Positions 28,171 through 48,737 of a stretch of DNA of 64,000 nucleotides are shown here, piece after piece. Location of the stretch: contig NZ_MWQY01000016.1 of NCBI RefSeq assembly GCF_002087085.1, positions 1 to 64,000 of the forward strand. Direction: 5' to 3'. Each line of letters starts with the position of its first letter. Position 1 is the first letter of the stretch. The DNA is from Marispirochaeta aestuarii. GTDB taxonomy: Bacteria > Spirochaetota > Spirochaetia > JC444 > Marispirochaetaceae. The translations under genes were made by a program, and so were the position numbers. Under the pieces are notes generated by a model. It was not told the origin of the DNA. It did no database searches and saw only the letters and a list, made by a program, of their open reading frames with translations.

Positions 28171-29538
28171 ATGATCGTTAAGAACGGACTGGTTGCCTTC
28201 AGCGGCGAGGATGAATTCCTCCGAAAAGACCTGAGGCTGCAGGACGGCCGTATTGTCGAAATCGGCCGGGATCTTACGGCGAATCACGATGACGAGATAC
28301 TGGACGCATCGGACTGCTGGGTTCTTCCCGGCGGCATTGACCCGCATGTTCACTTTTATGACCCCGGCTATACTGACAAGGAAGATTTTGCCCACGGCAG
28401 CGCTGCAGCAGTCTCCGGAGGGGTGACCACTGTAATCGACATGCCCTGTACCTCTCTGCCTCCTGTAACTGATTCCCGGTCCCTTCAGGGAAAACTGAAC
28501 ATAGTATCTCCGAAAGCCCATGTGGATTTCGGCTTCTTCGGGGGCGTCTCGCGGCAGCTCTTCGACGCAGGCTGCGAGGAGTCCATGGCTTCCATAGCCG
28601 AACAGGTAATGGGCTTCAAGGTCTACGCCGTATCGGGGATGGAAGAGGTCTGGGGTGCTCTGGACCACTGGCGCTTTCGTAAGGTTCTGGAGATCGCCGC
28701 AGGTCTCGGCAGCATTGTGCTGCTCCACGCCGAGGATGCCGAATACGTGGTCAATGCCTCGGAGGAACTGGAAAAAAGGCGCAGGGACCCGGAGGCCTGG
28801 TATCTTGCCCGTCCGGAGCTGGCGGAGGTCCTTGCCGTTACAAGTGCCCTGCGGATTGCCGCGGAAGCCCGGGGAAACCTGCATATCGTACACATCGGCA
28901 CCGCCGAGGCGGCACGGCTTTTGGCCGCTCCGCAGCCGGAGGGCTGCCGGATAAGCGGAGAGACCTGTCCCCAGTACCTGGCCTTCAGCCTGGATGACTT
29001 TATCGCCCAGGGGGCGGTCCTGAAGATAGCCCCGCCGATCAAGAAAGCGGGTAACCGGGAGAAGCTCTGGGAACTGCTGAAGGCGGGAACCATTGAGTTT
29101 GTGGCCTCGGACCATGCCCCGGGAACGGCGGGGGAGAAGTCCGGAAGGGACATCTGGAAGAACTCCGCGGGGATCGCCGGAACGGGCACCATGCTGCCCT
29201 TTCTTTTTTCAGAAGCTTACCTGGCCGGCAGGCTGTCCCTCTCCCGTTTTCTCGAAGTCGCCTCGGAAAATGCCGCCAGGCGCTACGGCTTTTTTGACCG
29301 CAAGGGTTCCATCGATACCGGCAAGGACGCCGACCTCGTTCTGATAAATTCCAGGGAAAACTGGACGGTCCGGGGAGACCAGTTCCTCTCCAGGGGGAAA
29401 CTGACTCCCTTTGAGGGCAGGACTTTTACCGGCAGGGTGGAAAAGACCCTGGTCCGGGGCCGGACTGTCTTTGATCGCCGGCGGGGTGCCCTGGAGGCCG
29501 GCTGGGGCGAGTTTATACGACCGACAAGGAGTGTGTAA
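28171..29538 (+). CDS. hyuA: D-hydantoinase/dihydropyrimidinase-type ring-opening amidohydrolase
   Basis: 455 residues, close to E. coli HyuA/YgeZ. Metal ligands HVHF near residue 57, carboxylated Lys in GFKVYAVSG (near 150), LLHAED, HIVHIG and the Asp in SDHAPGT (near 312). This family hydrolyses cyclic amides such as hydantoins and dihydropyrimidines. In the anaerobic purine pathway it is one of the ring-opening enzymes acting after reduction of the purine ring. The first gene of a nine-gene operon ending at 41335, behind a strong promoter and structured leader. Its stop shares one base with the ygfK start. Confidence 0.9.
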   Translation: MIVKNGLVAFSGEDEFLRKDLRLQDGRIVEIGRDLTANHDDEILDASDCWVLPGGIDPHVHFYDPGYTDKEDFAHGSAAAVSGGVTTVIDMPCTSLPPVTDSRSLQGKLNIVSPKAHVDFGFFGGVSRQLFDAGCEESMASIAEQVMGFKVYAVSGMEEVWGALDHWRFRKVLEIAAGLGSIVLLHAEDAEYVVNASEELEKRRRDPEAWYLARPELAEVLAVTSALRIAAEARGNLHIVHIGTAEAARLLAAPQPEGCRISGETCPQYLAFSLDDFIAQGAVLKIAPPIKKAGNREKLWELLKAGTIEFVASDHAPGTAGEKSGRDIWKNSAGIAGTGTMLPFLFSEAYLAGRLSLSRFLEVASENAARRYGFFDRKGSIDTGKDADLVLINSRENWTVRGDQFLSRGKLTPFEGRTFTGRVEKTLVRGRTVFDRRRGALEAGWGEFIRPTRSV

Positions 29539-32500
29539 TGGGAGATGCAATGAGGCTTCTGCCTTTTGACGAGCTTTTAACGCGGATCTTCGAAGAATAC
29601 AGGGACGGCGGGTCGATCTTCGATCTTCCAGAGGATTCGTGGTTTCGCAAGAAGAACGGAAAAAGCCTTTCCATCTTCGGAAATCCCATGGAGACTCCCC
29701 TTGGGCCCGCCGCGGGACCCCATACCCAGCTGGCCTCGAACATTATCGCCTCCTACCTGACGGGAAGCCGCTTTATCGAGCTGAAAACCGTGCAGATCCT
29801 CGACTCCCTGGAGATCGAAAAACCCTGTATCGATGCCGCCGACGAGGGTTACAATACCGAGTGGTCCACGGAACTCTCCCTGGATGAGGCCTGGCAGGAG
29901 TACGCCAAAGCCTGGATTATTCTGCACCTTCTGGAAGAGCTCTTCGGTCTCCGGCGGACGGAAAACCGGCGCTCCTTTGTCTTCAACATGAGCGTCGGCT
30001 ACGATCTTAAAGGGATCAAAAGTGAGCCCATGCAGCGCTACCTCCGCCGCATGAAAGACTCTTCGTCGGAAAAGCTTTTTTCAGGTTGGATCGACCAGGC
30101 AAAACAGATGCTCCCGGAGCTGCTGAAGGGCTCGGAACTTGAGCGGCGCAGCCGGGTTCTGTCCGATTTTAGGGTTTCCGGTAAAATCTGCGGTTCCGTG
30201 ACCCTCTCCACCATGCACGGCTGCCCTCCGGAGGAGATCGAGGCGATCTGCTCCTACATGCTCAGGGAGCAGAAGCTGGATACCTATGTAAAACTGAATC
30301 CCACCCTCCTGGGCTATGGGACGGTCCGGGAAATCCTGGACGGCCTGGGCTACACCTATGTGGAGCTCAATCCGGAGAGTTTCGAACACGATCTTCAGCT
30401 TCCCCGGGCCCTTGAGATTCTTTCCCGGCTGCGGAAGCTGGCGGCGGATTCGGGACGGAACTTCGGGGTCAAACTGACCAATACCCTGGCCTGTAGAAAC
30501 AACCAGGGACGGCTTCCGGGAGAGGAGATGTACCTCTCCGGCCGGGCACTCTTTCCCCTTTCAATTAACGTTGCCGCCCGGCTTTCCGAGGAGTTCGGCG
30601 GAGAACTGCCCATCTCCTTTTCCGGCGGAATAAGTATCCATAACGCTGCGGAGGTTTTCGCCACCGGTATCCGGCCGGTCACCCTGGCGACGGAGCTTCT
30701 GAAGCCCGGCGGATACCTGCGGCAGGTCCAGCTTGCAAAGCTGCTGGAAGAGCTTCCTGAAGCCGACTGGCAGAGGGAACGCATCGACGTACAGGCCCTG
30801 AAAAGTCTTGCCGCCTCTTCCCTGAGGGACCGAAGCCTCTCCAAGGAGTTCCGGGGCAGCGATGCGGTCCATAATCCGGGGGAACTGCCATTGTTCGACT
30901 GCTATGTAGCCCCCTGCGTCAGTGCCTGTGCCATCGGTCAGCATATTCCGGAATACCTGCGCCTGGCCGGGGAGGGCAGGTACGGAGAGGCCCTGGAGTG
31001 CATTTACGAGCGCAACGCCCTGCCCTCAATCACCGGCCACATCTGCGACCACCAGTGTCAGCTGGTCTGTACCCGCCTGGATTACGAGGGCGCCCTCAAC
31101 ATCCGGGAGGTCAAGAAGATCTCCCTGCTCAAAGGTATGGAGGAGTATCAGCGCCGCTGGGTCAAGCCGGAGATCCGGCATCCTGAGCGGATCGCTGTCG
31201 TAGGAGCAGGGCCCGCGGGGCTTTCTGCGGCCTATTTCCTTGCCCGGGAAGGTTTTTCCGTAACCGTCCTTGAGCGGGAAGAGGATGCCGGCGGTGTCGT
31301 GCGCTACGTGGTGCCCCACTTCCGGATAAGCCGGGAGGCCATTGACCGGGACATAGATTTTATCCGCCAGCACGGAGTGGAGTTCCGCTTCGGGGTGGAT
31401 GAGAATATCGATATTGAAGCCCTCAAAAAAGAAGGATTCACCTATATTGTTCTGGGTCTCGGAACCTACCGGAGCCGAAAGCTTCCCATAGAGGGTGACA
31501 GCCAGCGGATCTATCCATCCCTCTCCTTCCTGACCCAGTTCAACCGCGACCCCTCCCGCCTTAAGGTGGGCCGCCGGGTCGTGGTTATCGGGGCCGGGGA
31601 TACCGCCATGGACTGCGCCCGGGCGGCCCTGCGCTGTTCCGGAGTCGAGGAGGTTCAGATTGCCTACCGCAGGGCCTTCGAGCAGATGCCCGCCAGCCGG
31701 GAGGAGTACGAATACGCCGCGGAGGACGGGATCTCCTTCCGCTGGCTCAGGAACCCTGAACGCTTTAGCGCCGACGGCAGTCTTACCCTGCGGGTAATGG
31801 AGCTGGGAGAACCCGACGAATCGGGGCGGAGGCGCCCTGTTCCGACGGACAGGACGGAAGAGATTAAGGCGGACAGTCTGATTTATGCTGTGGGTGATGA
31901 TCCCGATTCCGATGCTCTGAAGAGCGCAGGTCTCGAGCCCGATGTAAAGGGCATGGTTCCCACCGGGGAAGGCGGGGAGACTGATCGGGAAAACATCTTT
32001 CTCATCGGAGACAGCCGGACCGGGGCATCCACCATCGTCAACTGCATCGCCGAAGGCCGCAGGGCCGCCGACGCCATCTGCCGTAAAAGCGATTCCCTCT
32101 GGGAGCGGAGCGAGCTTATTCCCTACCTGGATCCGGAGGAGCGGACGGCGGACATCGCCGTCAAGAAAGGGCATCTCTCTTCCAGGCCGGATCCCCGGTC
32201 CGACTACGACTCGGCGTCCTTCTGCGCCACCGAAAAGTCCCGCTGTCTTGAATGCGATTTCCTCTGCAACAAGTGCGTCGATGTCTGCCCCAACCGGGCC
32301 AATATAAAGGTGGAAACCGCGGGGCAGGAGCAATTTGACGATGCCTTTCAGATTGTGCATATCGATGCCTACTGCAACGAGTGCGGCAACTGCGGACAGT
32401 TCTGCCCCTGGGACGGACGCCCCTACGCGGACAAGCCCACGGTTTTCAGCAGTCCGGCGGATTTTGAAAACAGCAGCAACCCCGGCTGGCTCCTTGAGAA

Positions 32501-32672
32501 CGGGAGCCTCCGCGTACGTTTTCAGGGACGGGTACAGACCCTGGACCTGGGGGAGGCCTTCAAGCGCTCGGAAGGACGGGATGATGAAGCGCGTTTTTAT
32601 CGGCTCTTTGAGCTTCTTCACCATCGAAGACCCCACCTCTTTACCCGACTTTCCTCGGGAGGTGCGGTATGA
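29538..32672 (+). CDS. ygfK: YgfK-type iron-sulfur flavoprotein oxidoreductase
   Basis: 1,044 residues, as in E. coli YgfK (about 1,030), once called a putative selenate reductase subunit. The order is a dihydroorotate-dehydrogenase-like N-terminal barrel (MHGCPPEEI, VKLNPTLLGYG), a Cys-rich linker near 454 (CYVAPCVSACAIG) as in GltD, and two dinucleotide folds (GAGPAGLSAAYFL near 555, GAGDTAMDCAR near 684). A C-terminal ferredoxin part has CNKCVDVCP near 910 and CNECGNCGQFCPW near 945. Recent work on gut bacteria implicates YgfK in anaerobic urate/purine degradation, presumably in electron transfer to the ring. It overlaps ssnA by ATGA. Confidence 0.93.
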   Translation: MGDAMRLLPFDELLTRIFEEYRDGGSIFDLPEDSWFRKKNGKSLSIFGNPMETPLGPAAGPHTQLASNIIASYLTGSRFIELKTVQILDSLEIEKPCIDAADEGYNTEWSTELSLDEAWQEYAKAWIILHLLEELFGLRRTENRRSFVFNMSVGYDLKGIKSEPMQRYLRRMKDSSSEKLFSGWIDQAKQMLPELLKGSELERRSRVLSDFRVSGKICGSVTLSTMHGCPPEEIEAICSYMLREQKLDTYVKLNPTLLGYGTVREILDGLGYTYVELNPESFEHDLQLPRALEILSRLRKLAADSGRNFGVKLTNTLACRNNQGRLPGEEMYLSGRALFPLSINVAARLSEEFGGELPISFSGGISIHNAAEVFATGIRPVTLATELLKPGGYLRQVQLAKLLEELPEADWQRERIDVQALKSLAASSLRDRSLSKEFRGSDAVHNPGELPLFDCYVAPCVSACAIGQHIPEYLRLAGEGRYGEALECIYERNALPSITGHICDHQCQLVCTRLDYEGALNIREVKKISLLKGMEEYQRRWVKPEIRHPERIAVVGAGPAGLSAAYFLAREGFSVTVLEREEDAGGVVRYVVPHFRISREAIDRDIDFIRQHGVEFRFGVDENIDIEALKKEGFTYIVLGLGTYRSRKLPIEGDSQRIYPSLSFLTQFNRDPSRLKVGRRVVVIGAGDTAMDCARAALRCSGVEEVQIAYRRAFEQMPASREEYEYAAEDGISFRWLRNPERFSADGSLTLRVMELGEPDESGRRRPVPTDRTEEIKADSLIYAVGDDPDSDALKSAGLEPDVKGMVPTGEGGETDRENIFLIGDSRTGASTIVNCIAEGRRAADAICRKSDSLWERSELIPYLDPEERTADIAVKKGHLSSRPDPRSDYDSASFCATEKSRCLECDFLCNKCVDVCPNRANIKVETAGQEQFDDAFQIVHIDAYCNECGNCGQFCPWDGRPYADKPTVFSSPADFENSSNPGWLLENGSLRVRFQGRVQTLDLGEAFKRSEGRDDEARFYRLFELLHHRRPHLFTRLSSGGAV

Positions 32673-33997
32673 TTCTGTTTACCAATGCGACCCTGGTGGA
32701 ATTTGATCCTCCCCGGATACGATATAATGAGGATGTTCTGGTGGAGGGAGATACCATAATCAAAGTCGGAAAGGGACTCGATGCTGCGGGAGTCGAAAGA
32801 ACCGTGGATGGGTCGGGAAAACTGCTTTTCCCCGGGATCGTCTGTTCCCACACCCACTTCTATTCCGGCCTTTCCCGGGGGATCATGGCGAATATCGGGG
32901 ACACCCCGGATTTTGTCTCCATTCTGAAGAATCTCTGGTGGCGACTGGACCGGGCTCTGGACTCCGGGAGTCTTCGTGCTTCGGGGCTTATCTGTTCTCT
33001 GGATGCCATCCGCGCAGGCACCACCGCGGTGATCGATCATCACGCCTCGCCGAACTTCATTTCCGGGTCCCTGGATGTTCTTAAAAAAGCCTTCGAGGAG
33101 ACGGGTTTGCGGGGGACCACCTGTTACGAGGTGACCGACCGTCATGGTGAAGAGGCGATGCAGGAAGGGGTGGACGAGAACATCGCCTTTGCCCGGAGTA
33201 TCGATGCTGAAAAAAAAGCGGGGACCTGGTCCGGCCTGACGGAGGCCCATATCGGGGGGCATGCCCCCTGCACCCTGCCGGATGCCGCCCTGAAACTCCT
33301 GGCTGATGCCTGTGAAGAGCGCGGCCGGGGTTTTCATGTGCACCTGGCGGAGGATGCCTGGGACGTCTCCCATTCCCACATAAATTACGGAAAAGACCTG
33401 GTTTTCCGGCTGGATAACTTCGGTCTGGTCAGAGACAACAGCATCCTGGTCCACGGTGTCCATCTGAACCCCGACGAAGTGGAGCGCATCAACGAACGCG
33501 GGGCCTTCCTGGTGCACAACTCCAGGTCCAACATGAATAACGGGGTGGGCTACAATCCCAATCTTCCCCGCCTCGAAAACTGGGCCCTGGGAACCGACGG
33601 TATCGGATCGGATATGTTCGCCGAGATGCAGAGCGCCTACTTCAAGCATAAGGACGAGAAGGGGCCTCTCTGGCCGGGGGACTTCCTGGCAGCTCTGGCT
33701 GCAGGTAACCGTATTCTGGAAAAGAGTTTCGGAAGGCCTTTCGGTCGGATCGAACCGGGCTATACCGCCGACCTGGTTGTGGCGGACTATGCCTCTCCAA
33801 CGCCTCTTGAGCCGGAGAATATCGCGGGACATATGGTATTCGGCATGGCATCGAACATTGTAGAGACGGTCATGATAAACGGAAGGATCGTCATGGAAAA
33901 GCGGAGTTTCCCGGGGATTCCCCGGGAGGATATATACCGTGATGCGGCGGAACAGGCGCGGCGCCTCTGGGAGCGAATGGACCGAATCACGCCGTAA
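32669..33997 (+). CDS. ssnA: SsnA aminohydrolase
   Basis: A 442-residue amidohydrolase of the E. coli SsnA type. Metal site CSHTHFYSGLSRG near residue 60, DHHASP, HVHLAEDAWD near 222, the second-half ligands in HGVHL near 263 and the Asp in GTDGIGSD near 307. In known purine clusters ssnA directly follows ygfK, as here. It is required in the anaerobic urate pathway and probably deaminates or opens a purine-derived intermediate. The chain of coupled genes pauses after it, with a 33-bp gap before ygeY. Confidence 0.93.
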   Translation: MILFTNATLVEFDPPRIRYNEDVLVEGDTIIKVGKGLDAAGVERTVDGSGKLLFPGIVCSHTHFYSGLSRGIMANIGDTPDFVSILKNLWWRLDRALDSGSLRASGLICSLDAIRAGTTAVIDHHASPNFISGSLDVLKKAFEETGLRGTTCYEVTDRHGEEAMQEGVDENIAFARSIDAEKKAGTWSGLTEAHIGGHAPCTLPDAALKLLADACEERGRGFHVHLAEDAWDVSHSHINYGKDLVFRLDNFGLVRDNSILVHGVHLNPDEVERINERGAFLVHNSRSNMNNGVGYNPNLPRLENWALGTDGIGSDMFAEMQSAYFKHKDEKGPLWPGDFLAALAAGNRILEKSFGRPFGRIEPGYTADLVVADYASPTPLEPENIAGHMVFGMASNIVETVMINGRIVMEKRSFPGIPREDIYRDAAEQARRLWERMDRITP

Positions 33998-34030: not shown

Positions 34031-35266
34031 ATGAGCGTACAAGAAATGATTCTGAAGAAGGCTGAAGGCTATCGTGACGAGGCGGCCCGGGTATTGAGCG
34101 ATCTTATCAGGCTTAAATCCTACAGCTCCGCTGAAAAGGATGTCTGTCTTCGCATAAAAGAGATGTGCGAACAGTACGGTTTCGACGAGGTGCGGATCGA
34201 CGGCCTGGGGAGTGTAATAGCACGGGTCGGATCGGGCCCGAAGAAGCTGGCCATCGACGCCCATATCGACACCGTCGAGGTGGGAGATCCCGCCCAGTGG
34301 CAGAAAGATCCTTTTTCGGGAGAGATTTCCGACGGCTTTGTCTATGGTCGGGGTGCTTCGGACCAGAAGGGGGGAGCCGCCTCGATGATTACCGCCGGAC
34401 GTATTCTGAAAGAGCTGGGCTACGACGGGGAGTACTCGGTCTATTTTACCTTTACCGTTATGGAAGAGGACTGCGACGGGATGTGCTGGAAGTACCTGAT
34501 CGAGGAGGAGGGTTTGAAGCCCGATTTCGCCGTCTCCACCGAACCTACATCCTGCAGGCTTTACCGGGGACACCGGGGCAGGATGGAGATGGTCGCCCGC
34601 TTGAAAGGTGTCTCCGCTCACGGCTCGGCCCCGGAACGGGGAGAGAGCGCAGCCTACAAGGCTGCCCGGGCAGCCCTGGCAATGGAGCAGCTGAACAGCG
34701 ACCTCAAGCCTGATGAGGACAATTTCCTTGGAAAGGGGACCATCGTCGTCAGCCAGATCGATGTCAAGGGTCCCAGCCAGTGCGCCGTTCCGGATCAGGC
34801 CATGCTCTATCTTGACCGGCGACTGACCTGGGGGGAGGACAAGGAGCTGGCCATATCCCAGGTAAAGGAGTACATGGCCCGGGCCATCGGTGAAGATGAA
34901 TCCGCCGTAAGCGTCAGCATGCCCCGATACGAGAAGCGGGGATGGAAGGAGGCCGACTACAGCCAGGAACTCTACTTCCCCACCTGGAAGATCCCCGAGG
35001 AGCACGAGATAGTCCAGGCCGGCAGGCGTGCCTACGAGGCGCTCTGGGGAAAATCCCCGGTAATCGACAAGTGGACCTTTTCCACCAACCTGGTGGCGGT
35101 AACGGGACGGCACAAAATCCCCGCCATAGGTTTCGGCCCGGGGGATGAGAACCAGGCCCATGCCCCCAACGAAAAGACCCGGGTGGAGGATCTTGTTATC
35201 TGTTCCGCCTTCTACGCCATGCTGCCCTACGCCCTGGAAGGGCAGGAAGGAAAAGGCGGGGCATGA
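34031..35266 (+). CDS. ygeY: YgeY-type M20 family hydrolase
   Basis: 411 residues (E. coli YgeY 403). M20/ArgE-DapE fold: first metal motif DAHIDTVEVGD near residue 75, GRGASDQKGG with the bridging Asp near 106, catalytic Glu pair EEDCDG near 144, and the dimerisation domain containing GHRGRMEM and AHGSAPERGE. The last metal ligand is HAPNE near the C-terminus. It would hydrolyse an N-acyl or ureido/formamido amino acid produced by ring opening, giving the amino acid taken up by the PLP enzymes encoded beside it. AGGGGA ribosome site; overlaps the next gene by ATGA. Confidence 0.92.
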   Translation: MSVQEMILKKAEGYRDEAARVLSDLIRLKSYSSAEKDVCLRIKEMCEQYGFDEVRIDGLGSVIARVGSGPKKLAIDAHIDTVEVGDPAQWQKDPFSGEISDGFVYGRGASDQKGGAASMITAGRILKELGYDGEYSVYFTFTVMEEDCDGMCWKYLIEEEGLKPDFAVSTEPTSCRLYRGHRGRMEMVARLKGVSAHGSAPERGESAAYKAARAALAMEQLNSDLKPDEDNFLGKGTIVVSQIDVKGPSQCAVPDQAMLYLDRRLTWGEDKELAISQVKEYMARAIGEDESAVSVSMPRYEKRGWKEADYSQELYFPTWKIPEEHEIVQAGRRAYEALWGKSPVIDKWTFSTNLVAVTGRHKIPAIGFGPGDENQAHAPNEKTRVEDLVICSAFYAMLPYALEGQEGKGGA

Positions 35267-36414
35267 TCAGTTTCAGCTGTGCCTGCAGCCTCTGCGGCCG
35301 GGAGTACGAATTTACCCCTGAACGGATGCTCTGCGACGACTGCGCATCCCGGCAGACCCCGGACCAGCCCTTGATGGGGGTCCTGGAGTTCCGTCCGGAA
35401 GGGCAGCTCCCCCGGGACTGGGACAGCCTGGATCTGCTGCCGGTGGAACGGGAGTACTTTCCCCCGGTTCCCGTGGGGCAGACGCCCCTGTGGGAACCGG
35501 AAATTCTGCGCAGGGAGACCGGATTTCCAAAACTCTTTCTGAAGGATGACAGCCGGAATCCCACGGGATCCCTGAAGGACAGGGCCAGCTATCTGGTGGC
35601 CGCCTACGCCAGACGGGAAGGCATCGAACGCATCGTGGTGGCATCCACCGGCAATGCCGGCTCCTCCATGGCGGGAATCGGTGCCGCGGCGGGACTTTCG
35701 GTTAAGCTCTTTCTTCCTGCTTCTGCTCCGCCTGCCAAGCTTGTTCAGTCCCTTCAGTATGGTGCGGACCTGATTCGGGTCGACGGAACCTACGACCTGG
35801 CATACGACCGCTCCATGGCCTGTGTCGCCGGGGAGGGCGGACTCTCGCGGAATACCGCCCACAATCCCCTGACCATTGAAGGCAAGAAGACCGTCTCCCT
35901 GGAGATCTTCCGACAGCTGGGAGGCCGTGTACCGGATTACGTCTTCGTCCCTACCGGAGACGGGGTAATCCTGAGCGGCGTCTACCGGGGCTTCGAGGAT
36001 CTGTTCAGCCTGGGGCTGGCAGACCGGATGCCCTGCTGCGTTGCGGTCCAGGCGGAGGGTTCTGCGGCCATAAGCCGTGCCCTGGATGCCGGCAGTTTCG
36101 GGACACCCGTCGCGTCGTCGACGATTGCCGACTCCATCTCTGTGGATGTACCCCGGGGAGGACTCTTTGCCCTGGGACGCCTTCAGCGCCACGGTGGAAA
36201 AGCGGTAATCGTGAGCGACCGGGAAATCCTTGCCGCCCAGAGGAGCCTCTCCTCCCGGTCCGGACTATTCGCTGAACCCGCCGCCGCCGCCGCGTGGGCC
36301 GGATTCGTAAAGATGAAGGATGAAATAGATCCCGGAGCCACAGTGGCAGTACTGATTACCGGAAACGGCCTGAAGGACATCGACTCTGCCAAAAAGGGAG
36401 TAAGCCTGTCATGA
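35263..36414 (+). CDS. Threonine-synthase-like PLP enzyme with N-terminal zinc-ribbon-like segment
   Basis: 383 residues. A short Cys-rich start (CACSLCGREYEF, then MLCDDCA) looks like a zinc ribbon, as in some threonine synthases. The body is fold-type II PLP: NPTGSLKDRASY with the PLP lysine near 104, ASTGNAGSSMAG for the phosphate and ring contacts, a glycine-rich VPTGDG, and a C-terminal PAAAAAW. Homoserine-pathway genes are absent around it. It sits inside the purine operon (ATGA on both sides), so it most likely performs a beta-elimination or replacement on an amino acid from ring degradation. E. coli has no counterpart in its cluster. Substrate unknown. Confidence 0.82.
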   Translation: MISFSCACSLCGREYEFTPERMLCDDCASRQTPDQPLMGVLEFRPEGQLPRDWDSLDLLPVEREYFPPVPVGQTPLWEPEILRRETGFPKLFLKDDSRNPTGSLKDRASYLVAAYARREGIERIVVASTGNAGSSMAGIGAAAGLSVKLFLPASAPPAKLVQSLQYGADLIRVDGTYDLAYDRSMACVAGEGGLSRNTAHNPLTIEGKKTVSLEIFRQLGGRVPDYVFVPTGDGVILSGVYRGFEDLFSLGLADRMPCCVAVQAEGSAAISRALDAGSFGTPVASSTIADSISVDVPRGGLFALGRLQRHGGKAVIVSDREILAAQRSLSSRSGLFAEPAAAAAWAGFVKMKDEIDPGATVAVLITGNGLKDIDSAKKGVSLS

Positions 36415-38552
36415 GTGCCGATATAAGCAAATCGATTCCCCGGGCCGACGGCAGGGCCAAGGCCGAAGGGCGGGCACGCTATATTGCCGATTATCCCCAT
36501 GATGATATGCTGTGCGCCCGTTTTTACCGGGCACCTTTTTCCCGGGGGATAATACGCTCCATCAAACTACCGGAACTCCCCGAGGGCTACCATGCGGTTG
36601 ACTATCGGGATATCCCTGCGGCCAACCATATAGCCCTGATCAAGAACGACCTGCCCGCCTTTGCGGAAAAGGAGATCCGCTACAGGGGACAGATCATCCT
36701 CATTCTGGCGGGCCCCGACCCGGACATGGTTGACGAACTCCTTCAGGAAATCGAGGTGGATTACGAGGCGGGAATCCCCGCTGCAGGTATCGATGAGGGG
36801 CTTGCCTGTGTCGGCGGTCCCATCCATGGAACAGACAACATTTATGCCGATCTCCATATAAAAAAAGGCGATCCCGACGCAGCATTCGCCTCTGCGGCCC
36901 GGATCGTGGAGGGAGAATACTCCACCGGGTTTCAGGAACAGCTCTATATGGAGCCCCAGGGGCTCATGGCCTGGACGGAGGAAGAGAACCGGAAGGTGGT
37001 GGTTCAGGGGTCCATGCAGTGCCCCTATTACGTTAAGCATTCCGTGGAAGAGGTACTGGGCGAGGGCTATGAGGTCAGGGTCATCGAGACAACCACCGGC
37101 GGCGCCTTCGGCGGCAAGGAGGACTACCCTGAGATTATGGGAGCCCCCCTGGCGGTGGCTGCCGTCAAAATCGGAAAACCCTTGAGGATGGTCTTCGACC
37201 GTTTCGAGGACCTCTCCTGGACCTCCAAGAGGCACCCCTCACGGACCCGGATCCGCACCGCCCATGACGCGGATGGACGGATCACAGCCATGGATTACGA
37301 CATAATCATCGACGGCGGTGCCTACGAAAGCTACTCCCTGATAGTTTTGCAGCGTGCCATCTTTACCTCCAACGGGGTCTATAATTTCCCCAATGTGCGG
37401 GTTCGGGGCAGGGCGGTGGCAAGCTCCACCGTGCCCTCCGGCGCTTTTCGCGGTTTCGGGGCCCCCCAGGCTATCTACGCCCTGGAGATGCACATGGAGA
37501 AGGCTGCCAGGGAGTTCTCGGCGGATCCTGTTGATTACCGGATGCCCTATGTCGCTGCCAAGGGGGACCCCACCATCACCGGCGGCAGAATCCACGAAGA
37601 CGTCATCATGGACCGCCTTATAGAAAAAGCCCTGGAGATTTCCGGCTTCCGGGAAAAACGTGAACGGTACCGGAAGGAGCCCTGGAAAGGTATCGGCATC
37701 TCCTTTTTCAACCATGGCTGCGGTTTTACCGGCGACGGAGAGCAGCGTCTTATAAAGGCAAAGGCCTCCCTGCGGAAAAACGCCGACGACAGCGTGGACA
37801 TTCTTATTGCCAACATCGATATGGGGCAGGGACCACAGACTACCTTTCCAAAAATTGTGGCCCGCATTCTTGACCTCCCCCGGGAAAGGATCCGCTACGA
37901 CAACCCCGATACCGACAAGGTTCCCAATTCAGGTCCCACCGTGGCGAGCAGGACCATGATGATTGTGGGATACCTGGTTCAGAAGGCGGCAGAGCGGCTG
38001 AAAAAGGAGTGGGTCGGCGGAAAGGTCCAGGAGATCGAGGAGCACTACTCCATGCCCCCCTATGTCCGCTGGAAGCAGGAGACCCTGACCGGGGACGCCT
38101 ATCCGGCCTTCGGCTGGGGGATCAACGTGGTCGAGGTCGAGGTGGATCCCGTGACCTGGGAACCCGCAGTCCTCGGGGCCTGGGGTGTCTATGACGTGGG
38201 AGTCGCCATTGATGAGAGGGTCGTGGCCGGCCAGATCCAGGGGGGCATGAGCCAGGCCCTGGGCTACGCCTGTCTTGAAAATCTTGAAGTCGACGGTGAC
38301 GGGGTATTTCGTCAGCGTACCATGGCGGACTACATTGTTCCCACCAGCCTGGATTTTCCCCGTACGGGAGCCTGTACCCTGGACAATCCCTATGAGTACG
38401 GCCCCTTTGGTGCCAAGGGGGTGGGAGAGATCGTCCATGATGGCGGACACGCGGCTTTCTGCGCTGCTCTTGAGCAGGCCACGGGCAGGGACTGTCCTGA
38501 TGTTCCCCTTACCCCGGAACGCTTACTGGAGATTATGAACAATGACGATTGA
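36411..38552 (+). CDS. xdhA: Xanthine dehydrogenase-type molybdopterin-binding subunit
   Basis: 713 residues, molybdenum hydroxylase large subunit (E. coli XdhA 752). Aldehyde-oxidase hammerhead at 1-110, the Moco-binding GGAFGGKEDYPE near 230, FRGFGAPQA near 345, MGQGPQTTFPK and the terminal GPFGAKGVGE carrying the catalytic Glu. With the next two genes it makes a three-subunit xanthine dehydrogenase oxidising hypoxanthine to xanthine or xanthine to urate (reversible in reducing conditions). The cofactor would be finished by the MocA encoded at 15.2 kb. Coupled to its neighbours: ATGA upstream, an 11-bp overlap downstream. Confidence 0.92.
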   Translation: MSADISKSIPRADGRAKAEGRARYIADYPHDDMLCARFYRAPFSRGIIRSIKLPELPEGYHAVDYRDIPAANHIALIKNDLPAFAEKEIRYRGQIILILAGPDPDMVDELLQEIEVDYEAGIPAAGIDEGLACVGGPIHGTDNIYADLHIKKGDPDAAFASAARIVEGEYSTGFQEQLYMEPQGLMAWTEEENRKVVVQGSMQCPYYVKHSVEEVLGEGYEVRVIETTTGGAFGGKEDYPEIMGAPLAVAAVKIGKPLRMVFDRFEDLSWTSKRHPSRTRIRTAHDADGRITAMDYDIIIDGGAYESYSLIVLQRAIFTSNGVYNFPNVRVRGRAVASSTVPSGAFRGFGAPQAIYALEMHMEKAAREFSADPVDYRMPYVAAKGDPTITGGRIHEDVIMDRLIEKALEISGFREKRERYRKEPWKGIGISFFNHGCGFTGDGEQRLIKAKASLRKNADDSVDILIANIDMGQGPQTTFPKIVARILDLPRERIRYDNPDTDKVPNSGPTVASRTMMIVGYLVQKAAERLKKEWVGGKVQEIEEHYSMPPYVRWKQETLTGDAYPAFGWGINVVEVEVDPVTWEPAVLGAWGVYDVGVAIDERVVAGQIQGGMSQALGYACLENLEVDGDGVFRQRTMADYIVPTSLDFPRTGACTLDNPYEYGPFGAKGVGEIVHDGGHAAFCAALEQATGRDCPDVPLTPERLLEIMNNDD

Positions 38553-39021
38553 ATTCTTTGTAAACGGTATGCCTGTTCTGGTACAGGCCGACCCCATGAA
38601 ACGGCTTCTGGACATCCTGCGGGAGAACCTCTCCATGGCAGGAACCAAGGAGGGCTGTGGAGAGGGGGAGTGCGGCGCCTGCAGTGTTCTGATGGACGGC
38701 AGACTGGTGAACAGTTGTCTTATCCCCATGGCACAGGTCGAAGGCACCCGCGTTGAGACCATCGACGGTCTTCGGGAAAGTGCGGCCGGACAAATCCTGA
38801 GCGAAGCCTTCGCTGAGGCCCATTCAGTGCAGTGCGGTTTCTGTACCCCCGGCATGATGATGGCAACCCTGGCCCTTCTGAAGGGGAACCCCGATCCGAC
38901 GGAGGGTGAGATACGCCTGGCCCTTTCGGGAAACATCTGCCGCTGTACCGGTTATGACATGATTATCGATGGTGTGATGCTGGCCGCGCGCAGGGCACGG
39001 GAGCAGGGGGTCGCCTGGTGA
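38542..39021 (+). CDS. xdhC: Xanthine dehydrogenase 2Fe-2S subunit
   Basis: 159 residues, identical in length to E. coli XdhC. It contains both [2Fe-2S] sites: the plant-ferredoxin-like CGEGECGACSV...C near residues 40-60, and the second, CGFCTPGM near 99 with CRCTGY near 134. It passes electrons from the molybdenum subunit to the FAD subunit. It starts inside the last codons of the large-subunit gene and ends in a GTGA overlap with the FAD-subunit gene. All eight ligand cysteines are present, in contrast to the degenerate domain of XdhD nearby. Confidence 0.95.
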   Translation: MTIEFFVNGMPVLVQADPMKRLLDILRENLSMAGTKEGCGEGECGACSVLMDGRLVNSCLIPMAQVEGTRVETIDGLRESAAGQILSEAFAEAHSVQCGFCTPGMMMATLALLKGNPDPTEGEIRLALSGNICRCTGYDMIIDGVMLAARRAREQGVAW

Positions 39022-39875
39022 AAAGACTGCGACCGACACGGCTTGAGGATGCTCTGGAGTTCAGGGCTGAGTATAAGGCCCTGCCATTTGCCGGAGGGAC
39101 CGATCTGATGGTGCGTCACCGTGGTTACACCGGGACCCTTCCGAAGATACAGTCCCCGGTACTGTTTCTCGATGCCCTGGATGAGCTGAAAACCCTGGAA
39201 ATCGTGGATGGTACGCTGCGGATCGGCGCGGGGGTCAGCATGGCGGAACTGTTGGCTTTTCCTGGAACCCCTGAACTGCTTCGCCGGGCCGTGCAGCTGA
39301 TCGCGGCCCCTGCCCTCCGGAACAGGGCCAGCCTGGGAGGGAATATCTGTAACGCCTCCCCTGCAGCGGACAGCCTGCCGCCCCTGTATGTGCATCAGGC
39401 CAAGGTTGTAGCTGTTTCCCGGGAGGGAGAACGGAGTCTTCCAATTGCCGAATTCCTTACCGGTCCCGGACAGACCGCCCTCAAGGAGTATGAAATACTC
39501 CTGAGAATTGAGCTTCCCCTGCTGCCTGAGAAAGGCAGGCTTTACTACCGCAAGGTGGGGACCCGAAAAGCCAATGCCCTGTCAAAACTCTCCTCCGCAG
39601 GTTACGCAGAGATAGATAAGGGAAAGGTCCTTGATTTCCGTTTTGCCCTTGGCGCGGTGGCGCCAACGGTAATCCGTTTGTCGGAGGCGGAATCCCTGGT
39701 ACAGGGCGCATCGCTGAAAGAGATAGACACCCGTGCAGTGTCAGAAGCCGCGGAAACACGTATACAACCTATCGATGACCAGCGATCCAATGCGACATAC
39801 CGCAGGAAGATCGCCTTGAACAGTTTAATGGAATTTATTGAACAACTGAAAACTATTGTTCCGGAGGATTTATGA
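39018..39875 (+). CDS. xdhB: Xanthine dehydrogenase FAD-binding subunit
   Basis: 285 residues (E. coli XdhB 292) from a GTG that overlaps the preceding stop. FAD-binding PCMH-fold landmarks: LPFAGGTDLMV, ASLGGNICNASPAADSLPPL and, in the C-terminal domain, YYRKVGTRKANALSK. It would hand electrons from the 2Fe-2S subunit to NAD+ or a ferredoxin-like carrier. The gene order large, 2Fe-2S, FAD differs from E. coli xdhABC, in which the FAD gene comes second. Ends in an ATGA overlap with the second PLP enzyme. Confidence 0.93.
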   Translation: MKRLRPTRLEDALEFRAEYKALPFAGGTDLMVRHRGYTGTLPKIQSPVLFLDALDELKTLEIVDGTLRIGAGVSMAELLAFPGTPELLRRAVQLIAAPALRNRASLGGNICNASPAADSLPPLYVHQAKVVAVSREGERSLPIAEFLTGPGQTALKEYEILLRIELPLLPEKGRLYYRKVGTRKANALSKLSSAGYAEIDKGKVLDFRFALGAVAPTVIRLSEAESLVQGASLKEIDTRAVSEAAETRIQPIDDQRSNATYRRKIALNSLMEFIEQLKTIVPEDL

Positions 39876-41335
39876 TTGATTTGACCGTACATGAGGCACA
39901 GATTGAAAAAAACGCACAGCTCTGTGCCCGGCAGGGGATTCTTCTGCCGACATACAAGGAGATGGCGGATCCCGATACTGTTTCGGCCGAAATCAAGGAA
40001 GAGCTCAAGGGTATCGGGCTGAACCAGGTCCATTCCCGAAACCTTTACCGGGTAACCTGGGAGAACGAAGCTCTGGAGACCGGCGGCACCTACAGCGGGG
40101 TTAACTATATCGAAATTCCCTCGTCCCTGACGGGAATAAGGGCCCGGGTTGTCGGTCTTGTGGGCAAGTGGTTTCCCACCGGCGCCCATAAGGTAGGAGC
40201 CGCTTACAGCTGTCTGGCCCCGACTCTGGTGACCGGACAGTTTGATCCGGAAAAGAACATGGCGGTCTGGCCTTCCACTGGTAATTATTGCCGGGGAGGG
40301 GCCTATATTTCCCGCCTGCTGGCATGTAAATCCGTAGCGATACTCCCGGAGGAAATGTCACAGGAACGTTTCAACTGGCTCAGGAAGATGGCGGACGAGA
40401 CCATTGCAACCCCCGGGTGTGAAAGCAACGTAAAGGAGATCTTTGACAAGTGCGCCGAACTCAATGCCGAGCGGGGAGACAGCATTTTTATCTTCAACCA
40501 GTTCTCAGAATTCGGAAACCATCTCTGGCATCACGAGGTAACCGGCCGTTCAATGGAAAAGGTTCTGAAGCAGATAATGGGACCCAAAGACCGTTTTGCC
40601 GGTACCTGTGTCTCCTCGGGTTCCGCCGGAACCACTGCCAGCGGTGAGTACCTGAAGCGGGTCTACCCCGGGGCAAAACTTGCGGTGAGTGAAGCCCTGC
40701 AGTGTCCCACCCTGCTTTCCAACGGCTTCGGCGGACATCGCATCGAGGGAATCGGTGACAAGCATGTACCCTGGATACACAATCTGAAGAATACCGATAT
40801 GGTTGTAGCCATCGACGACGAAGCGACCATGAGACTTTTACGGCTCTTTAACGAAGCCCTGGGCAAGGCCTACCTGAAAGAAAAAGGAGTGGATCCGTCC
40901 CTGATCGAGGTTTTGAACGTGATGGGTATAAGCAGTATCTGTAATCTGCTCACGGCCATCAAATTTGCCAAATACTATGAACTGACGGAAGAAGATGTGG
41001 TAATGACGGTCTTCACCGATTCGGAAGCTATGTACACCTCCCGTCTTGCGGAGCTTAACGCGGAGCGGGGACCCTACACCAGGGACAACGCCGTGGCGGA
41101 CTTTGAACTTCTCCGGAGAACCGGTATCGACGCCCTGCTGGAGCTTCGTTATGAGGACCGCAAGCGTATTCATAACCTGAAATACTACACCTGGGTGGAG
41201 CAGCAGGGAAAAACCTATGCCGAGATAAACGCTCAGTGGTACGACAGGGATTACTGGGAGAATATCTACCGGGCCAAGGACAGACTTGATGAACTGATCC
41301 TGGAGTTTAACGAGCGGGTGCGGAGGTATATGTAG
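39872..41335 (+). CDS. Fold-type II PLP-dependent enzyme (cysteine-synthase superfamily, unassigned)
   Basis: 487 residues, longer than cysteine synthase (about 310) or diaminopropionate ammonia-lyase (about 400). PLP lysine K107 lies in TGAHKVGAAYSCL, the phosphate/carboxylate loop is WPSTGNYCRGGA, and the glycine-rich cradle is SSGSAGTTASGEY. It lacks the YgeX motifs (no KDES or GLNAFKALGG type block), so it is not the classical diaminopropionate ammonia-lyase. Proteins of this length class are annotated only as PLP-dependent subunit beta. As the last gene of the coupled operon it is a plausible terminal lyase releasing ammonia from the opened ring. The reaction is not known. Confidence 0.85.
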   Translation: MIDLTVHEAQIEKNAQLCARQGILLPTYKEMADPDTVSAEIKEELKGIGLNQVHSRNLYRVTWENEALETGGTYSGVNYIEIPSSLTGIRARVVGLVGKWFPTGAHKVGAAYSCLAPTLVTGQFDPEKNMAVWPSTGNYCRGGAYISRLLACKSVAILPEEMSQERFNWLRKMADETIATPGCESNVKEIFDKCAELNAERGDSIFIFNQFSEFGNHLWHHEVTGRSMEKVLKQIMGPKDRFAGTCVSSGSAGTTASGEYLKRVYPGAKLAVSEALQCPTLLSNGFGGHRIEGIGDKHVPWIHNLKNTDMVVAIDDEATMRLLRLFNEALGKAYLKEKGVDPSLIEVLNVMGISSICNLLTAIKFAKYYELTEEDVVMTVFTDSEAMYTSRLAELNAERGPYTRDNAVADFELLRRTGIDALLELRYEDRKRIHNLKYYTWVEQQGKTYAEINAQWYDRDYWENIYRAKDRLDELILEFNERVRRYM

Positions 41336-41339
41336 GATT

Positions 41340-41605
41340 TCGCAGAGTAACGCAGAGGATGAAGAGGAACCGCGCAGAGGCCGCTGAGGATGCAGAGATG
41401 GAGGGGCCGCGCAGAGGCCGCTGAGGACGCAGAGGATGGAGATGACCGCGCAGAGGTCGCAGAGTAACGGAGAGGATGGAGAGGGGCCGCGCAAAGGTCG
41501 CAGAGTAACGCAGAGGATGGAGAGGGGCCGCGCAAAGGTTGCTGAGGACGCAGAGATGAGGGGGCGCGCAGAGGCCGCGGAGGGTCGCAGAGGAGTAAAT
41601 GGAAG
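41340..41605 (+). repeat. Repeat block 1 of CGCAGAGG/CGCTGAGG units
   Basis: Six or so degenerate units of about 37-41 bp, each beginning CCGCGCAGAGG and built from the submotifs CGCAGAG, CGCTGAG and GGATGGAG. The block fills most of the 363-bp gap between the PLP-lyase gene and the amidohydrolase gene. A non-repetitive tail after it contains GCATCTCTGTTC, which recurs after block 3. No tandem CRISPR-like spacer pattern. Confidence 0.9.
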
Positions 41606-41698: not shown

Positions 41699-43069
41699 AT
41701 GATCTTGTTGAAGAATTGTTTTTACCTGGTAAAGTCGGCGGATGATCCGGGCAGCTTTGGAGTGGATGTTCTGATCCGGGGAAACCGCGTCGAGGCAGTC
41801 GGTTCGAATCTTGCTATGCCTGCAGATGCTGAGGGGAGGGTAATAGATGCTTCGCGGCATGTGGTAATTCCCGGCCTGGTAAATACTCATCACCATTTTT
41901 ATCAAACTCTTACCAGAAATCTTCCGGCGGTGCAGAACGCCAAGCTTTTTACCTGGCTGGTCTATTTATATGAAATCTGGAAATATCTGGATGAGGATGC
42001 CATCTACTGGTCCACAGCTCTGGCTACGGCGGAACTGCTTAAAACCGGCTGTACCCTGACGACCGACCATCATTATCTGTATCCCGGAGGTGTGGGGGCT
42101 GATATTATGGCCCTTCAGTTCAAGGCTGCCGGAGACACGGGAATACGCTTTTCTCCCACCAGGGGATCCATGAGCCTTTCCAAAAAGGACGGCGGGCTGC
42201 CTCCGGATACGGTAGTCCAGAGTGAAGACGATATCCTGGTCGACTCCGAGCGGGTGATCCGGGAGTTTCATGATTCCGATCCTTTTTCCATGCGAAAAAT
42301 AGCCCTTGCCCCCTGCAGTCCCTTTTCGGTGTCCGAACAGTCAATGAAGGATACCGCGGCTCTGGCGCGAAAGTACGGGGTGCTGCTGCATACCCACCTG
42401 GCGGAAACTAAGGACGAGAATAAATTCTGCGAACGAACCCTGGGGCGGCGGCCCTTGAAGGTGATGGAGGACTGTGACTTTGTGGGCCCCGATGTCTGGT
42501 TTGCCCACGGAATCCATTTTACCGATGATGAGCTTTCAGTCCTGCAAGAGACGGGCTGTCAGATTGCCCACTGCCCGACTTCCAACATGCGCCTTGGATC
42601 GGGGATTTGCAGGGTGAAAGAGATGAAGGAGATGGGGATAAACGTTGCCCTGGCGGTGGACGGCTCTGCTTCAAATGATTCTTCAGATATGCTCGGGGAG
42701 ATCCGGAATGCTCTTTTCCTGCAGCGGGTTGCCCATGGTGCCGATGCGTTAACAGGTCGGGACGTTTTCCGGATGGCGACCGAGAACGGAGCCAGACTCC
42801 TGAATTTCGAAAAAGCTGGTATAATAGAAGAGGGCGGACCTGCGGATATAGCCCTCTTTGATGTGCATAAATTGGAGTATGCAGGCTCCCTGTCGGATCC
42901 TCTGGGGGCGCTGATCTTTTCCGGTTACAACCATGGAACGGATTACACCATTGTCAACGGAAAACTCGTGGTGGAAAAAGGACGTCTTACCGGCATAGAC
43001 GAGGAGGATCTGAGTCGCAGGGCAAATGCGGCGGCGTCGAGACTCTATGAAAAAGCGGGGATTGTCTAG
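41699..43069 (+). CDS. Amidohydrolase, probably 8-oxoguanine/guanine-type deaminase
   Basis: A 456-residue zinc amidohydrolase of the ATZ/TRZ class. Metal ligands: NTHHHFYQTLTRNLPAV near 60-75, HTHLAETKDE near 240 and the Asp in VDGSASNDSSD near 330. The segments LFTWLVYLYEIWKYL and TTDHHYLYPGG match the pattern of 8-oxoguanine deaminases and hydroxyatrazine-type hydrolases. Deamination of 8-oxoguanine would give urate; guanine would give xanthine. Both fit the locus. It has its own GGAGGGG site and stands between two repeat blocks, so it may be transcribed separately. Confidence 0.85.
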   Translation: MILLKNCFYLVKSADDPGSFGVDVLIRGNRVEAVGSNLAMPADAEGRVIDASRHVVIPGLVNTHHHFYQTLTRNLPAVQNAKLFTWLVYLYEIWKYLDEDAIYWSTALATAELLKTGCTLTTDHHYLYPGGVGADIMALQFKAAGDTGIRFSPTRGSMSLSKKDGGLPPDTVVQSEDDILVDSERVIREFHDSDPFSMRKIALAPCSPFSVSEQSMKDTAALARKYGVLLHTHLAETKDENKFCERTLGRRPLKVMEDCDFVGPDVWFAHGIHFTDDELSVLQETGCQIAHCPTSNMRLGSGICRVKEMKEMGINVALAVDGSASNDSSDMLGEIRNALFLQRVAHGADALTGRDVFRMATENGARLLNFEKAGIIEEGGPADIALFDVHKLEYAGSLSDPLGALIFSGYNHGTDYTIVNGKLVVEKGRLTGIDEEDLSRRANAAASRLYEKAGIV

Positions 43070-43097
43070 CCGAGCCTGGGAAACCGTGCAGGGGGAG

Positions 43098-43417: not shown

Positions 43418-44218
43418 ATGATGCAGGACTATAAACTCGCTTCGAGTATTGAAGAGGCCGTGGAGCTTAACAAGGCGGGCTATGTGTTTCTTGCCGGGGG
43501 GACCCAGGTGAACCGGTCACCTTTTTTGAAGCATGGCCACCGCCCGGAGAAGGTGGTAAGCATTTCCGGGCTCGATTTGTCCGGTATTTCCCGGGAGGGC
43601 AACGAGTTTCTGATCGGTGCCGGTGCCACTTTACAGGATATTGCAGACAGCCATCTTATACCTGATGTTCTGCGCAGGGCGGCGGGATTTATTCCCAATA
43701 GAAGTGTCCGCAATATTGCGACCATCGGCGGTAACGTCGGAGCAAAGAGGCCCGATTCCTACCTGATACCCACACTGATGGCCCTCGGAGCCGTGGCGGA
43801 AACAGTCGCCGGGCCGGTATCAGTAAATGAGTATGTGGACGGGGATAACGAGACCCTGATAATCCGTTTTCGCATTCCTCCCCTGGAGGGAGCGTGCCGG
43901 GCAATAAAGGAGTCCCGGTCACACCAGGCATTGCCGGTGGTAAGCGCGGCGGCCTGGATGCGGGCTGAAGGGGGCGCTGTTAAGGAAGCCGTGGTAGCGG
44001 CGGGCTGTGTTGCTCCGAGAACGATGCGCCTGAGAGAAATCGAAGAGGGGATTGTCTCCGGGAAACTCCTGGAATCCGGACAGGCCCTGGAAGTGGCGGT
44101 GGCAGGGGCGATTCATCCCGAGGAGGATATCCTGGGAAGCCGGGAGTATAAAACCTATATCAACTCGGTTTTGATCGCCGATCTTGTCCGCGGTCTGGCA
44201 GAGGAGGTGCTCAAATGA
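43418..44218 (+). CDS. ygfM: FAD-binding subunit partner of XdhD
   Basis: 266 residues (E. coli YgfM 259) of the CoxM/XdhB FAD-binding class: FLAGGTQVNRSPF, LIGAGATLQDIADS, NRSVRNIATIGGNVG and a C-terminal SHQALPVVSAAAWM. It immediately precedes xdhD with an ATGA overlap, the same pair order as in E. coli (ygfM-xdhD). It presumably delivers electrons to or from the XdhD molybdenum centre. Two further ATG codons nearby make the exact start uncertain by a few residues. Confidence 0.9.
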   Translation: MMQDYKLASSIEEAVELNKAGYVFLAGGTQVNRSPFLKHGHRPEKVVSISGLDLSGISREGNEFLIGAGATLQDIADSHLIPDVLRRAAGFIPNRSVRNIATIGGNVGAKRPDSYLIPTLMALGAVAETVAGPVSVNEYVDGDNETLIIRFRIPPLEGACRAIKESRSHQALPVVSAAAWMRAEGGAVKEAVVAAGCVAPRTMRLREIEEGIVSGKLLESGQALEVAVAGAIHPEEDILGSREYKTYINSVLIADLVRGLAEEVLK

Positions 44219-48438: not shown

Positions 48439-48449
48439 GGAGAAGAGAG

Positions 48450-48632: not shown

Positions 48633-48737
48633 GTGACAGGAGAAAACTCGGCGCCCTCTGAGGTTCGGCGGTGATTCTCCTCAATCCTTGGTATGCTGTG
48701 CATCTCTGTTCCAAAAACAGGATGAAATACAGATTAT

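What the first reader, a model, noticed from the sequence alone, without database searches (positions are those of the whole stretch)
35263..41335. Two fold-type II PLP enzymes where ygeX is expected
The usual terminal step uses YgeX (diaminopropionate ammonia-lyase). Here no YgeX-type motif is seen. Instead a threonine-synthase-like protein with a zinc-ribbon-like start follows ygeY, and a 487-residue cysteine-synthase-superfamily protein (PLP Lys107) ends the operon. Both are coupled by 4-bp overlaps to pathway genes. They may split the YgeX reaction or serve a different amino-acid product, meaning a variant of the pathway.
Basis: partly seen in the sequence, partly recalled or inferred. Interest (0 to 1): 0.7.

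Follow-up and report, generated by a model that had tools for sequence, protein, structure and literature searches.

The report
Two-enzyme ending for bacterial urate breakdown
In a spirochaete's gene cluster for breaking down uric acid without oxygen, the usual last enzyme (YgeX) is missing; two uncharacterised vitamin-B6 enzymes sit in the cluster instead, and this pair recurs in uric-acid clusters of many other anaerobic bacteria, which points to an undescribed way of finishing the pathway.

Summary
The window carries a reductive urate (2,8-dioxopurine) cluster: hyuA, ygfK, ssnA, ygeY, xanthine-dehydrogenase genes, ygeW, carbamate kinase. It contains no ygeX. A 383-aa zinc-ribbon, threonine-synthase-like protein (TSL, 35263-36414) and a 487-aa cysteine-synthase-fold protein (P487, 39872-41335) are coupled into it by 4-bp overlaps. 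One correction: an orphan ygeX exists elsewhere in this genome, away from any urate gene. A 97%-complete genome of the same genus has TSL, P487 and the cluster but no ygeX.

The pair is not local. In 248 Spirochaetia genomes P487 and TSL co-occur (100 genomes) and track ygfK; wherever they share a contig they lie within 10 kb (73/73). P487 recurs in Anaerolineae, Halanaerobiales and other phyla; of 50 P487 genomes 37 carry ssnA, 30 ygeY, 8 ygeX. In three families where clusters lack TSL, a different ygeX appears and P487 stays.

TSL has lost the threonine-synthase phosphate arginine. P487 has an Asp (98/99 sequences) aligned to Asp232 of the serine-forming cysteine (hydroxyl) lyase Fn1055. Best reading: P487 turns diaminopropionate plus water into serine, and TSL eliminates ammonia to give pyruvate. 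The pathway link is shown; the chemistry is inferred. New variant of a known pathway.

The parts
28171..29538 (+). hyuA-like hydantoinase/dihydropyrimidinase-type amidohydrolase (pathway context)
   Evidence: allantoinase/dihydroorotase/D-hydantoinase family models; over one subfamily-level cut-off (TIGR00857), below the equivalog cut-offs
29538..32672 (+). ygfK (2,8-dioxopurine reductase)
   Evidence: TIGR03315 1371 bits, cut-off 835
32669..33997 (+). ssnA
   Evidence: TIGR03314 546 bits, cut-off 455
34031..35266 (+). ygeY (ureido-amino-acid hydrolase)
   Evidence: TIGR03526 495 bits, cut-off 321
35263..36414 (+). TSL: threonine-synthase-like fold-type II PLP enzyme with N-terminal zinc ribbon; proposed amino-acid ammonia-lyase that forms pyruvate
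   Evidence: 4-bp overlap with ygeY and with the next gene
36411..38552 (+). molybdopterin-binding xanthine-dehydrogenase-type subunit
38542..39021 (+). 2Fe-2S xanthine-dehydrogenase-type subunit
   Evidence: cysteine motifs CGEGECGAC and CGFCTPG in the sequence
39018..39875 (+). FAD-binding xanthine-dehydrogenase-type subunit (GTG start)
   Evidence: inferred from sequence and position
39872..41335 (+). P487: cysteine-synthase/CBS-fold PLP enzyme with its own C-terminal extension; proposed beta-hydroxyl-lyase (diaminopropionate + H2O to serine + NH3). Lys107 PLP lysine, Asn-loop 135-STGNYCR-141, phosphate loop 250-GSAGT-254, Asp296 in HRIEGIGDKHVPW
41699..43069 (+). 8-oxoguanine-deaminase-type amidohydrolase
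   Evidence: NF006055 577 bits, cut-off 532
43418..44218 (+). second FAD-binding subunit (YgfM-like position)
   Evidence: inferred from sequence and position
44215..47085 (+). fused 2Fe-2S/Mo subunit, XdhD candidate
   Evidence: not run against the family libraries
47242..48438 (+). ygeW knotted carbamoyltransferase
   Evidence: TIGR03316 753 bits, cut-off 500
18737..19681 (-). carbamate kinase (YqeA role)
   Evidence: identified by sequence, and homologues recur next to TSL/P487

Best explanation
TSL and P487 are the terminal amino-acid module of a reductive urate pathway that does not depend on a YgeX in the cluster. Upstream enzymes (XdhD, YgfK, SsnA, HyuA, YgeW, YgeY) deliver 2,3-diaminopropionate (DAP). 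P487 forms the alpha-aminoacrylate on PLP by expelling the 3-amino group, then adds water with Asp296 as general base, giving serine and NH3. TSL, a threonine-synthase relative that has lost phosphate recognition, performs the beta-elimination that finishes the route, giving pyruvate and NH3; its substrate is serine from P487, or DAP directly. Shown: both genes are conserved parts of urate clusters across phyla, are not housekeeping thrC/cysK, and TSL (not P487) is exchanged for YgeX in some clusters. Inferred: the substrates, products and order of the two reactions. Separate likelihoods: membership in the urate pathway about 0.9; TSL acting as the pyruvate-forming ammonia-lyase about 0.6; P487 as a serine-forming hydroxyl-lyase about 0.45.
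For: Coupling and neighbours. Of 248 Spirochaetia genomes, P487 is in 115, TSL in 104, ygfK in 100; P487-TSL odds ratio 215 (p 3e-47), ygfK-P487 odds ratio 95 (p 2e-39); 46 genomes have ygfK + P487 + TSL and no ygeX. All 73 same-contig TSL/P487 pairs are within 10 kb, 62 adjacent. Beyond spirochaetes, TSL lies near P487 in 46 of 80 loci, with carbamoyltransferase, carbamate kinase, D-hydantoinase, YgeY and a xanthine permease. Of 50 P487 genomes, 37 have ssnA over cut-off, 30 ygeY, 8 ygeX. TSL/YgeX swap: clusters L134-L136 carry ygeX, ygeW and P487 but no TSL, and ygeX lies within 5 kb of P487 in 3 of 7 TSL-less against 1 of 38 TSL-bearing genomes (p 0.009). P487 Asp296 aligns to Asp232 of Fn1055 (best PDB match of that stretch; the D232N mutant differs in exactly that column) and is kept in 98 of 99 homologues. 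Fn1055 converts cysteine + H2O to serine + H2S (PMC9865163). The TSL position of the threonine-synthase phosphate Arg is T, M or L in 58 of 58 readable homologues.
Against: No biochemistry exists. P487 also occurs with a complete YgeX-containing set (L135, L136), where a serine-forming step is not needed to finish the pathway. The two Asp of YgeX that bind DAP (Asp128 and Asp197 in the window genome's YgeX) are Thr and Asn in TSL, so there is no residue-level sign that TSL binds DAP. The AlphaFold loop holding P487 Asp296 (residues 277-300) has pLDDT below 50, so its place in the active site rests on the sequence alignment. The genome counts are phylogenetically non-independent, and many genomes are incomplete MAGs.
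Confidence: 0.45

Rival explanations
1. TSL alone replaces YgeX as a diaminopropionate ammonia-lyase. P487 does a side job on the same pool: it makes serine or cysteine for biosynthesis, racemises DAP, or processes a by-product such as albizziin.
For: TSL, not P487, is what disappears when a cluster-type ygeX is present. TSL and YgeX are related by profile comparison (hhalign probability 98.7%). P487 also occurs at a ygeW-ygeY locus without TSL (L035).
Against: The DAP-binding Asp residues of YgeX are not conserved in TSL. The near-perfect pairing of TSL with P487 over 100 genomes and several phyla suggests one shared task.
Confidence: 0.33
2. The orphan YgeX elsewhere in the genome finishes the pathway, and TSL/P487 serve another amino-acid product in the same regulon.
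For: A ygeX is present on contig C38, and ygeX is enriched in genomes with ygfK.
Against: The congeneric genome G002 (97% complete) keeps the cluster, TSL and P487 but has no ygeX. 46 Spirochaetia genomes and most of the 50 P487 genomes drawn across phyla lack ygeX. The ygeX contigs L011 and L143-L151 show no urate genes around ygeX in any of the 10 neighbourhoods inspected.
Confidence: 0.12
3. They are ordinary threonine synthase and cysteine synthase genes that happen to lie in the operon.
For: Family models that match these sequences are named threonine synthase and cysteine synthase; a Halanaerobium TSL even passes the NF006050 threonine-synthase cut-off (309.6 against 303).
Against: The genome has separate thrC (TIGR00260 274 bits, cut-off 167), cysK (435, cut-off 351) and another PRK06381-type gene. 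TSL and P487 of the window score below the cut-offs of the models they match. The phosphate Arg is absent in TSL, and association with urate genes is conserved across phyla.
Confidence: 0.06

Closest known systems
YgeX, diaminopropionate ammonia-lyase (TIGR03528/NF006058), last step of the E. coli and C. difficile reductive urate pathway (PMC12507026)
   Same: Same slot at the end of the pathway; PF00291 fold-type II PLP enzyme; TSL is related at profile level
   Different: TSL has a zinc ribbon and threonine-synthase signature and lacks the two substrate-binding Asp of YgeX; P487 aligns with YgeX only weakly (hhalign 32%); here two genes stand where YgeX is one
Threonine synthase (PRK08197/TIGR00260; PDB 2zsj, 2d1f, 6cgq)
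   Same: Best sequence and fold match of TSL (E 1e-48; TM 0.83 to target)
   Different: Substrate-phosphate Arg replaced by Thr/Met/Leu, GNAGN loop replaced by GDGV, sits among urate genes and not threonine genes
Cysteine (hydroxyl) lyase Fn1055 of Fusobacterium nucleatum (PDB 5b53, 5b55, 5z5c)
   Same: Shared Asp in the HRIEGI-x-D segment; CysK-type PLP fold
   Different: About 150 residues shorter; acts on cysteine, releasing H2S; the P487 loop STGNYCR and its C-terminal extension are its own
Cysteine synthase CysK / cystathionine beta-synthase core
   Same: Fold (TM about 0.8 to target), PLP-phosphate loop and catalytic lysine
   Different: At most 28% identity; Ala (CysK) or Tyr (CBS) where P487 has Asp296; family score far below CysK cut-offs

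Membership tests
Reductive urate (2,8-dioxopurine) gene cluster | SsnA, YgfK, YgeY and YgeW present together | tested here: met
   All four over curated cut-offs in the window
Reductive urate (2,8-dioxopurine) gene cluster | YgeX in the cluster | tested here: not met
   Only genome copy is on contig C38, with no urate genes on that contig
YgeX / diaminopropionate ammonia-lyase | TSL or P487 hit by TIGR03528/TIGR01747 | tested here: not met
   Neither protein is found by the TIGR03528 genome search; P487 lists no such model, and none is among the best 25 models of TSL
YgeX / diaminopropionate ammonia-lyase | Substrate Asp pair (ATDGNHG and SDT motifs) | tested here: not met
   Thr and Asn in TSL; P487 has STGNYC at the first and no confident alignment at the second. 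Role of the Asp pair is from my own knowledge of the E. coli enzyme
Threonine synthase | Fold and zinc-ribbon architecture | tested here: met
Threonine synthase | Arg that binds the substrate phosphate (NPxRxEG) | tested here: not met
   R in three solved threonine synthases; T/M/L in 58 TSL proteins with a readable motif. Role of this Arg is from my own knowledge of the T. thermophilus enzyme
Threonine synthase | Curated model cut-off | tested here: not met
   Window TSL 207 bits against 303 (NF006050) and 142 against 167 (TIGR00260); a Halanaerobium homologue does pass
Cysteine synthase (CysK) | Curated model cut-off | tested here: not met
   P487 90.6 bits against 351
Cysteine (hydroxyl) lyase (Fn1055 type) | Water-activating Asp in the GI-x-D loop | tested here: met
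   Asp296 aligned to Asp232, conserved in 98 of 99
Cysteine (hydroxyl) lyase (Fn1055 type) | Serine formation by beta-replacement with water | not testable with these tools
   Needs an enzyme assay
OrtB, 2-amino-4-ketopentanoate thiolase subunit | Sequence similarity and an OrtA partner | not tested
   Considered because of similar length (own knowledge); no OrtB model appeared among P487 hits, but no direct comparison was made

The most novel reading that the evidence does not exclude
P487 is a new enzyme, a diaminopropionate (hydroxyl) lyase that makes serine and ammonia from DAP and water. With TSL as partner, a widespread group of anaerobes ends urate degradation through serine instead of by the one-step YgeX reaction.
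Probability: 0.35. Interest if true: 0.75.

Novelty: new variant of a known kind. Interest (0 to 1): 0.6.

Why it matters
The reductive urate pathway was worked out only in 2025, in E. coli and clostridia, and it ends in YgeX. The 2025 survey of cluster variants scored YgeX simply as any PF00291 protein near SsnA (PMC12507026), so TSL and P487 would have been counted as YgeX and stayed invisible. Two unassigned PLP families, P487 alone with at least 590 matching loci among GTDB species, now have a concrete pathway and a testable substrate. The variant covers spirochaetes, Anaerolineae and Halanaerobiales, and would correct annotations that now read threonine synthase and cysteine synthase.

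Tried and rejected
OrtB-like thiolase for P487: considered because of its length, but no NCBIfam hit pointed there, so dropped. Mutual exclusion of the pair with ygeX at genome level: tested and false, since ygeX is enriched in genomes with P487; the exclusion appears only at cluster level and for TSL. P487 as the YgeX replacement: rejected because P487 stays in YgeX-containing clusters. Searches of the open literature for the pair in urate clusters (terms ygfK/ygeX/threonine synthase; ygfK/ssnA/ygeW; urate/spirochaete/ygfK) found no paper describing it; this covers the held open-access set only. The AlphaFold model was not used to place Asp296 because the loop has pLDDT below 50.
Full report
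Locus. The window lies on contig C16 of a 4.2-Mb genome whose named P487 relatives include spirochaetes; I call its class Spirochaetia on that basis. Between 18.7 and 48.4 kb it carries a purine/urate degradation set: carbamate kinase, adenine deaminase and a permease, then on the + strand a hydantoinase, YgfK (1371 bits), SsnA (546), YgeY (495), TSL, three xanthine-dehydrogenase-type subunits, P487, 8-oxoguanine deaminase (577), a second FAD subunit, a fused Fe-S/Mo subunit and YgeW (753). The published E. coli pathway is urate, 2,8-dioxopurine, ureidomethyl-hydantoin, diureidopropionate, albizziin, 2,3-diaminopropionate and finally pyruvate, catalysed by XdhD, YgfK/SsnA, HyuA, YgeW, YgeY and YgeX (PMC12507026; commentary PMC12990295). 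Every step has a candidate here except YgeX.

The two proteins. TSL matches threonine synthases (2zsj E 1e-48; AlphaFold pLDDT 92, best fold matches threonine synthases) but scores below their curated cut-offs. P487 matches cysteine synthase and CBS over the core only (pLDDT 82, TM about 0.8 to targets). It has a conserved C-terminal extension (HNLKYYTWVEQQ) and reaches no NCBIfam cut-off. The genome has separate thrC, a second PRK06381-type gene, cysK, trpB and a trpB relative, so neither protein is needed for housekeeping.

Where is ygeX? One ygeX exists, on contig C38 (523 bits against a cut-off of 532 in TIGR03528, but over the cut-offs of NF006058 and TIGR01747). Its 12-kb contig holds no urate genes. 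G002, a 97%-complete genome of the same genus with the same cluster (86% and 93% identity for TSL and P487), has none.

Distribution in Spirochaetia. In 248 genomes: ygfK 100, P487 115, TSL 104, ygeX 46 (counts after my own bit-score thresholds; fragments of ygfK included). All four occur in 37; ygfK + P487 + TSL without ygeX in 46; P487 and ygfK are strongly linked (odds ratio 95), as are P487 and TSL (215). P487 and TSL share a contig in 73 of 100 genomes and then always lie within 10 kb, 62 times adjacent. Of 20 P487 neighbourhoods read, most show ygfK, ssnA, ygeY or ygeW beside them. Caveats: shared ancestry and MAG incompleteness; by genus P487 is in 51 of 101, TSL in 49, ygeX in 21.

The swap. 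Two kinds of ygeX exist in these genomes. The orphan kind (58-83% identical to the window genome's copy) lies away from urate genes in most TSL-bearing genomes inspected (L143-L146, L148-L151; L147 is a more distant copy, also orphan; L133 and L152 are within about 5 kb of P487). A second kind (about 42% identical to it, 74-83% among themselves) sits inside urate clusters that lack TSL: L134, L135, L136, in L136 in the order ygeX, ygeW, P487, xdhD, ygeY, hyuA, ygfK, ssnA. Within these families genomes have either TSL or a ygeX, not both. So TSL appears to be the functional counterpart of YgeX, while P487 is a constant partner. These clusters probably descend from one or a few events, so this is suggestive, not proof.

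Beyond spirochaetes. Of the 80 best loci, 46 have TSL within about 10 kb, often with carbamate kinase, an OTC-type carbamoyltransferase, a D-hydantoinase over its cut-off, and in Halanaerobium kushneri a YgeY at 717 bits and a xanthine permease. Whole-genome searches of 50 of these found SsnA over cut-off in 37, YgeY in 30 and ygeX in 8. SsnA is a specific marker: over cut-off only in E. coli among 14 controls.

Residues. In three solved threonine synthases the motif NPxRxEG carries the Arg that grips the substrate phosphate (role: my own knowledge; letters). In 58 of 58 TSL proteins with a readable motif it is Thr, Met or Leu, and the GNAGN loop is GDGV or similar. TSL therefore should not use a phosphorylated substrate. 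The DAP-binding Asp pair of YgeX is Thr/Asn in TSL. In P487 the loop HRIEGIGDKHVP (or HIP) is kept in 98 of 99 homologues; its Asp296 aligns with the residue mutated in 5b55, D232N of Fn1055, whose entry title names a trapped aminoacrylate (alignment). CysK has Ala and CBS Tyr there. Fn1055 turns cysteine and water into serine and H2S, a cysteine (hydroxyl) lyase reaction (PMC9865163). By analogy P487 should replace a beta-substituent by water to give serine; in this pathway the obvious substrate is diaminopropionate.

Mechanism committed to. DAP + H2O to serine + NH3 (P487), then serine to pyruvate + NH3 (TSL), with the alternative that TSL acts on DAP directly. Shown: pathway membership and pairing. 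Inferred: substrates, products and order. The strongest counter-evidence is that P487 also accompanies a complete YgeX set.

Novelty. I found no description of this pair in the open-access library. The 2025 survey coloured SsnA neighbourhoods by PF00291 as 'YgeX', which would absorb TSL and P487. I file it as a new variant of a known pathway containing two uncharacterised enzyme families.

Noticed in passing
window 41340-41602, 43090-43392, 48440-48633: Intergenic arrays of imperfect 35-41-bp repeats (GCGCAGAGGnCGCnGAG...), ten or more copies of one family, in the spacers between pathway genes; they create spurious minus-strand ORFs rich in R, P, S and L.
   Followed up: partly
L035:7951-19718 (genome G027): A second P487 sits in a ygeW-P487-ygeY run without ygfK, ssnA or TSL, beside a hydantoin-racemase-like gene, a dihydropyrimidinase-like gene, an M20 hydrolase and a BMP-type ABC transporter (names from sequence alone): possibly a related hydantoin pathway.
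   Followed up: no
L064:11578-12153, L106:11566-12117 and similar: In Anaerolineae a 183-200 aa protein without any NCBIfam match at E 1e-20 often follows P487 directly.
   Followed up: no
G000:C38:4498-5748 (L011): The orphan ygeX of the window genome sits at a sharp GC step (33% upstream, 51% across the gene), away from urate genes; such orphan ygeX copies recur in other spirochaetes and may serve another diaminopropionate source.
   Followed up: partly
window 36411-39875 and 43418-47085: Two xanthine-dehydrogenase-type enzymes, one with separate subunits and one fused, flank P487; which one is the urate reductase (XdhD role) was not resolved.
   Followed up: no
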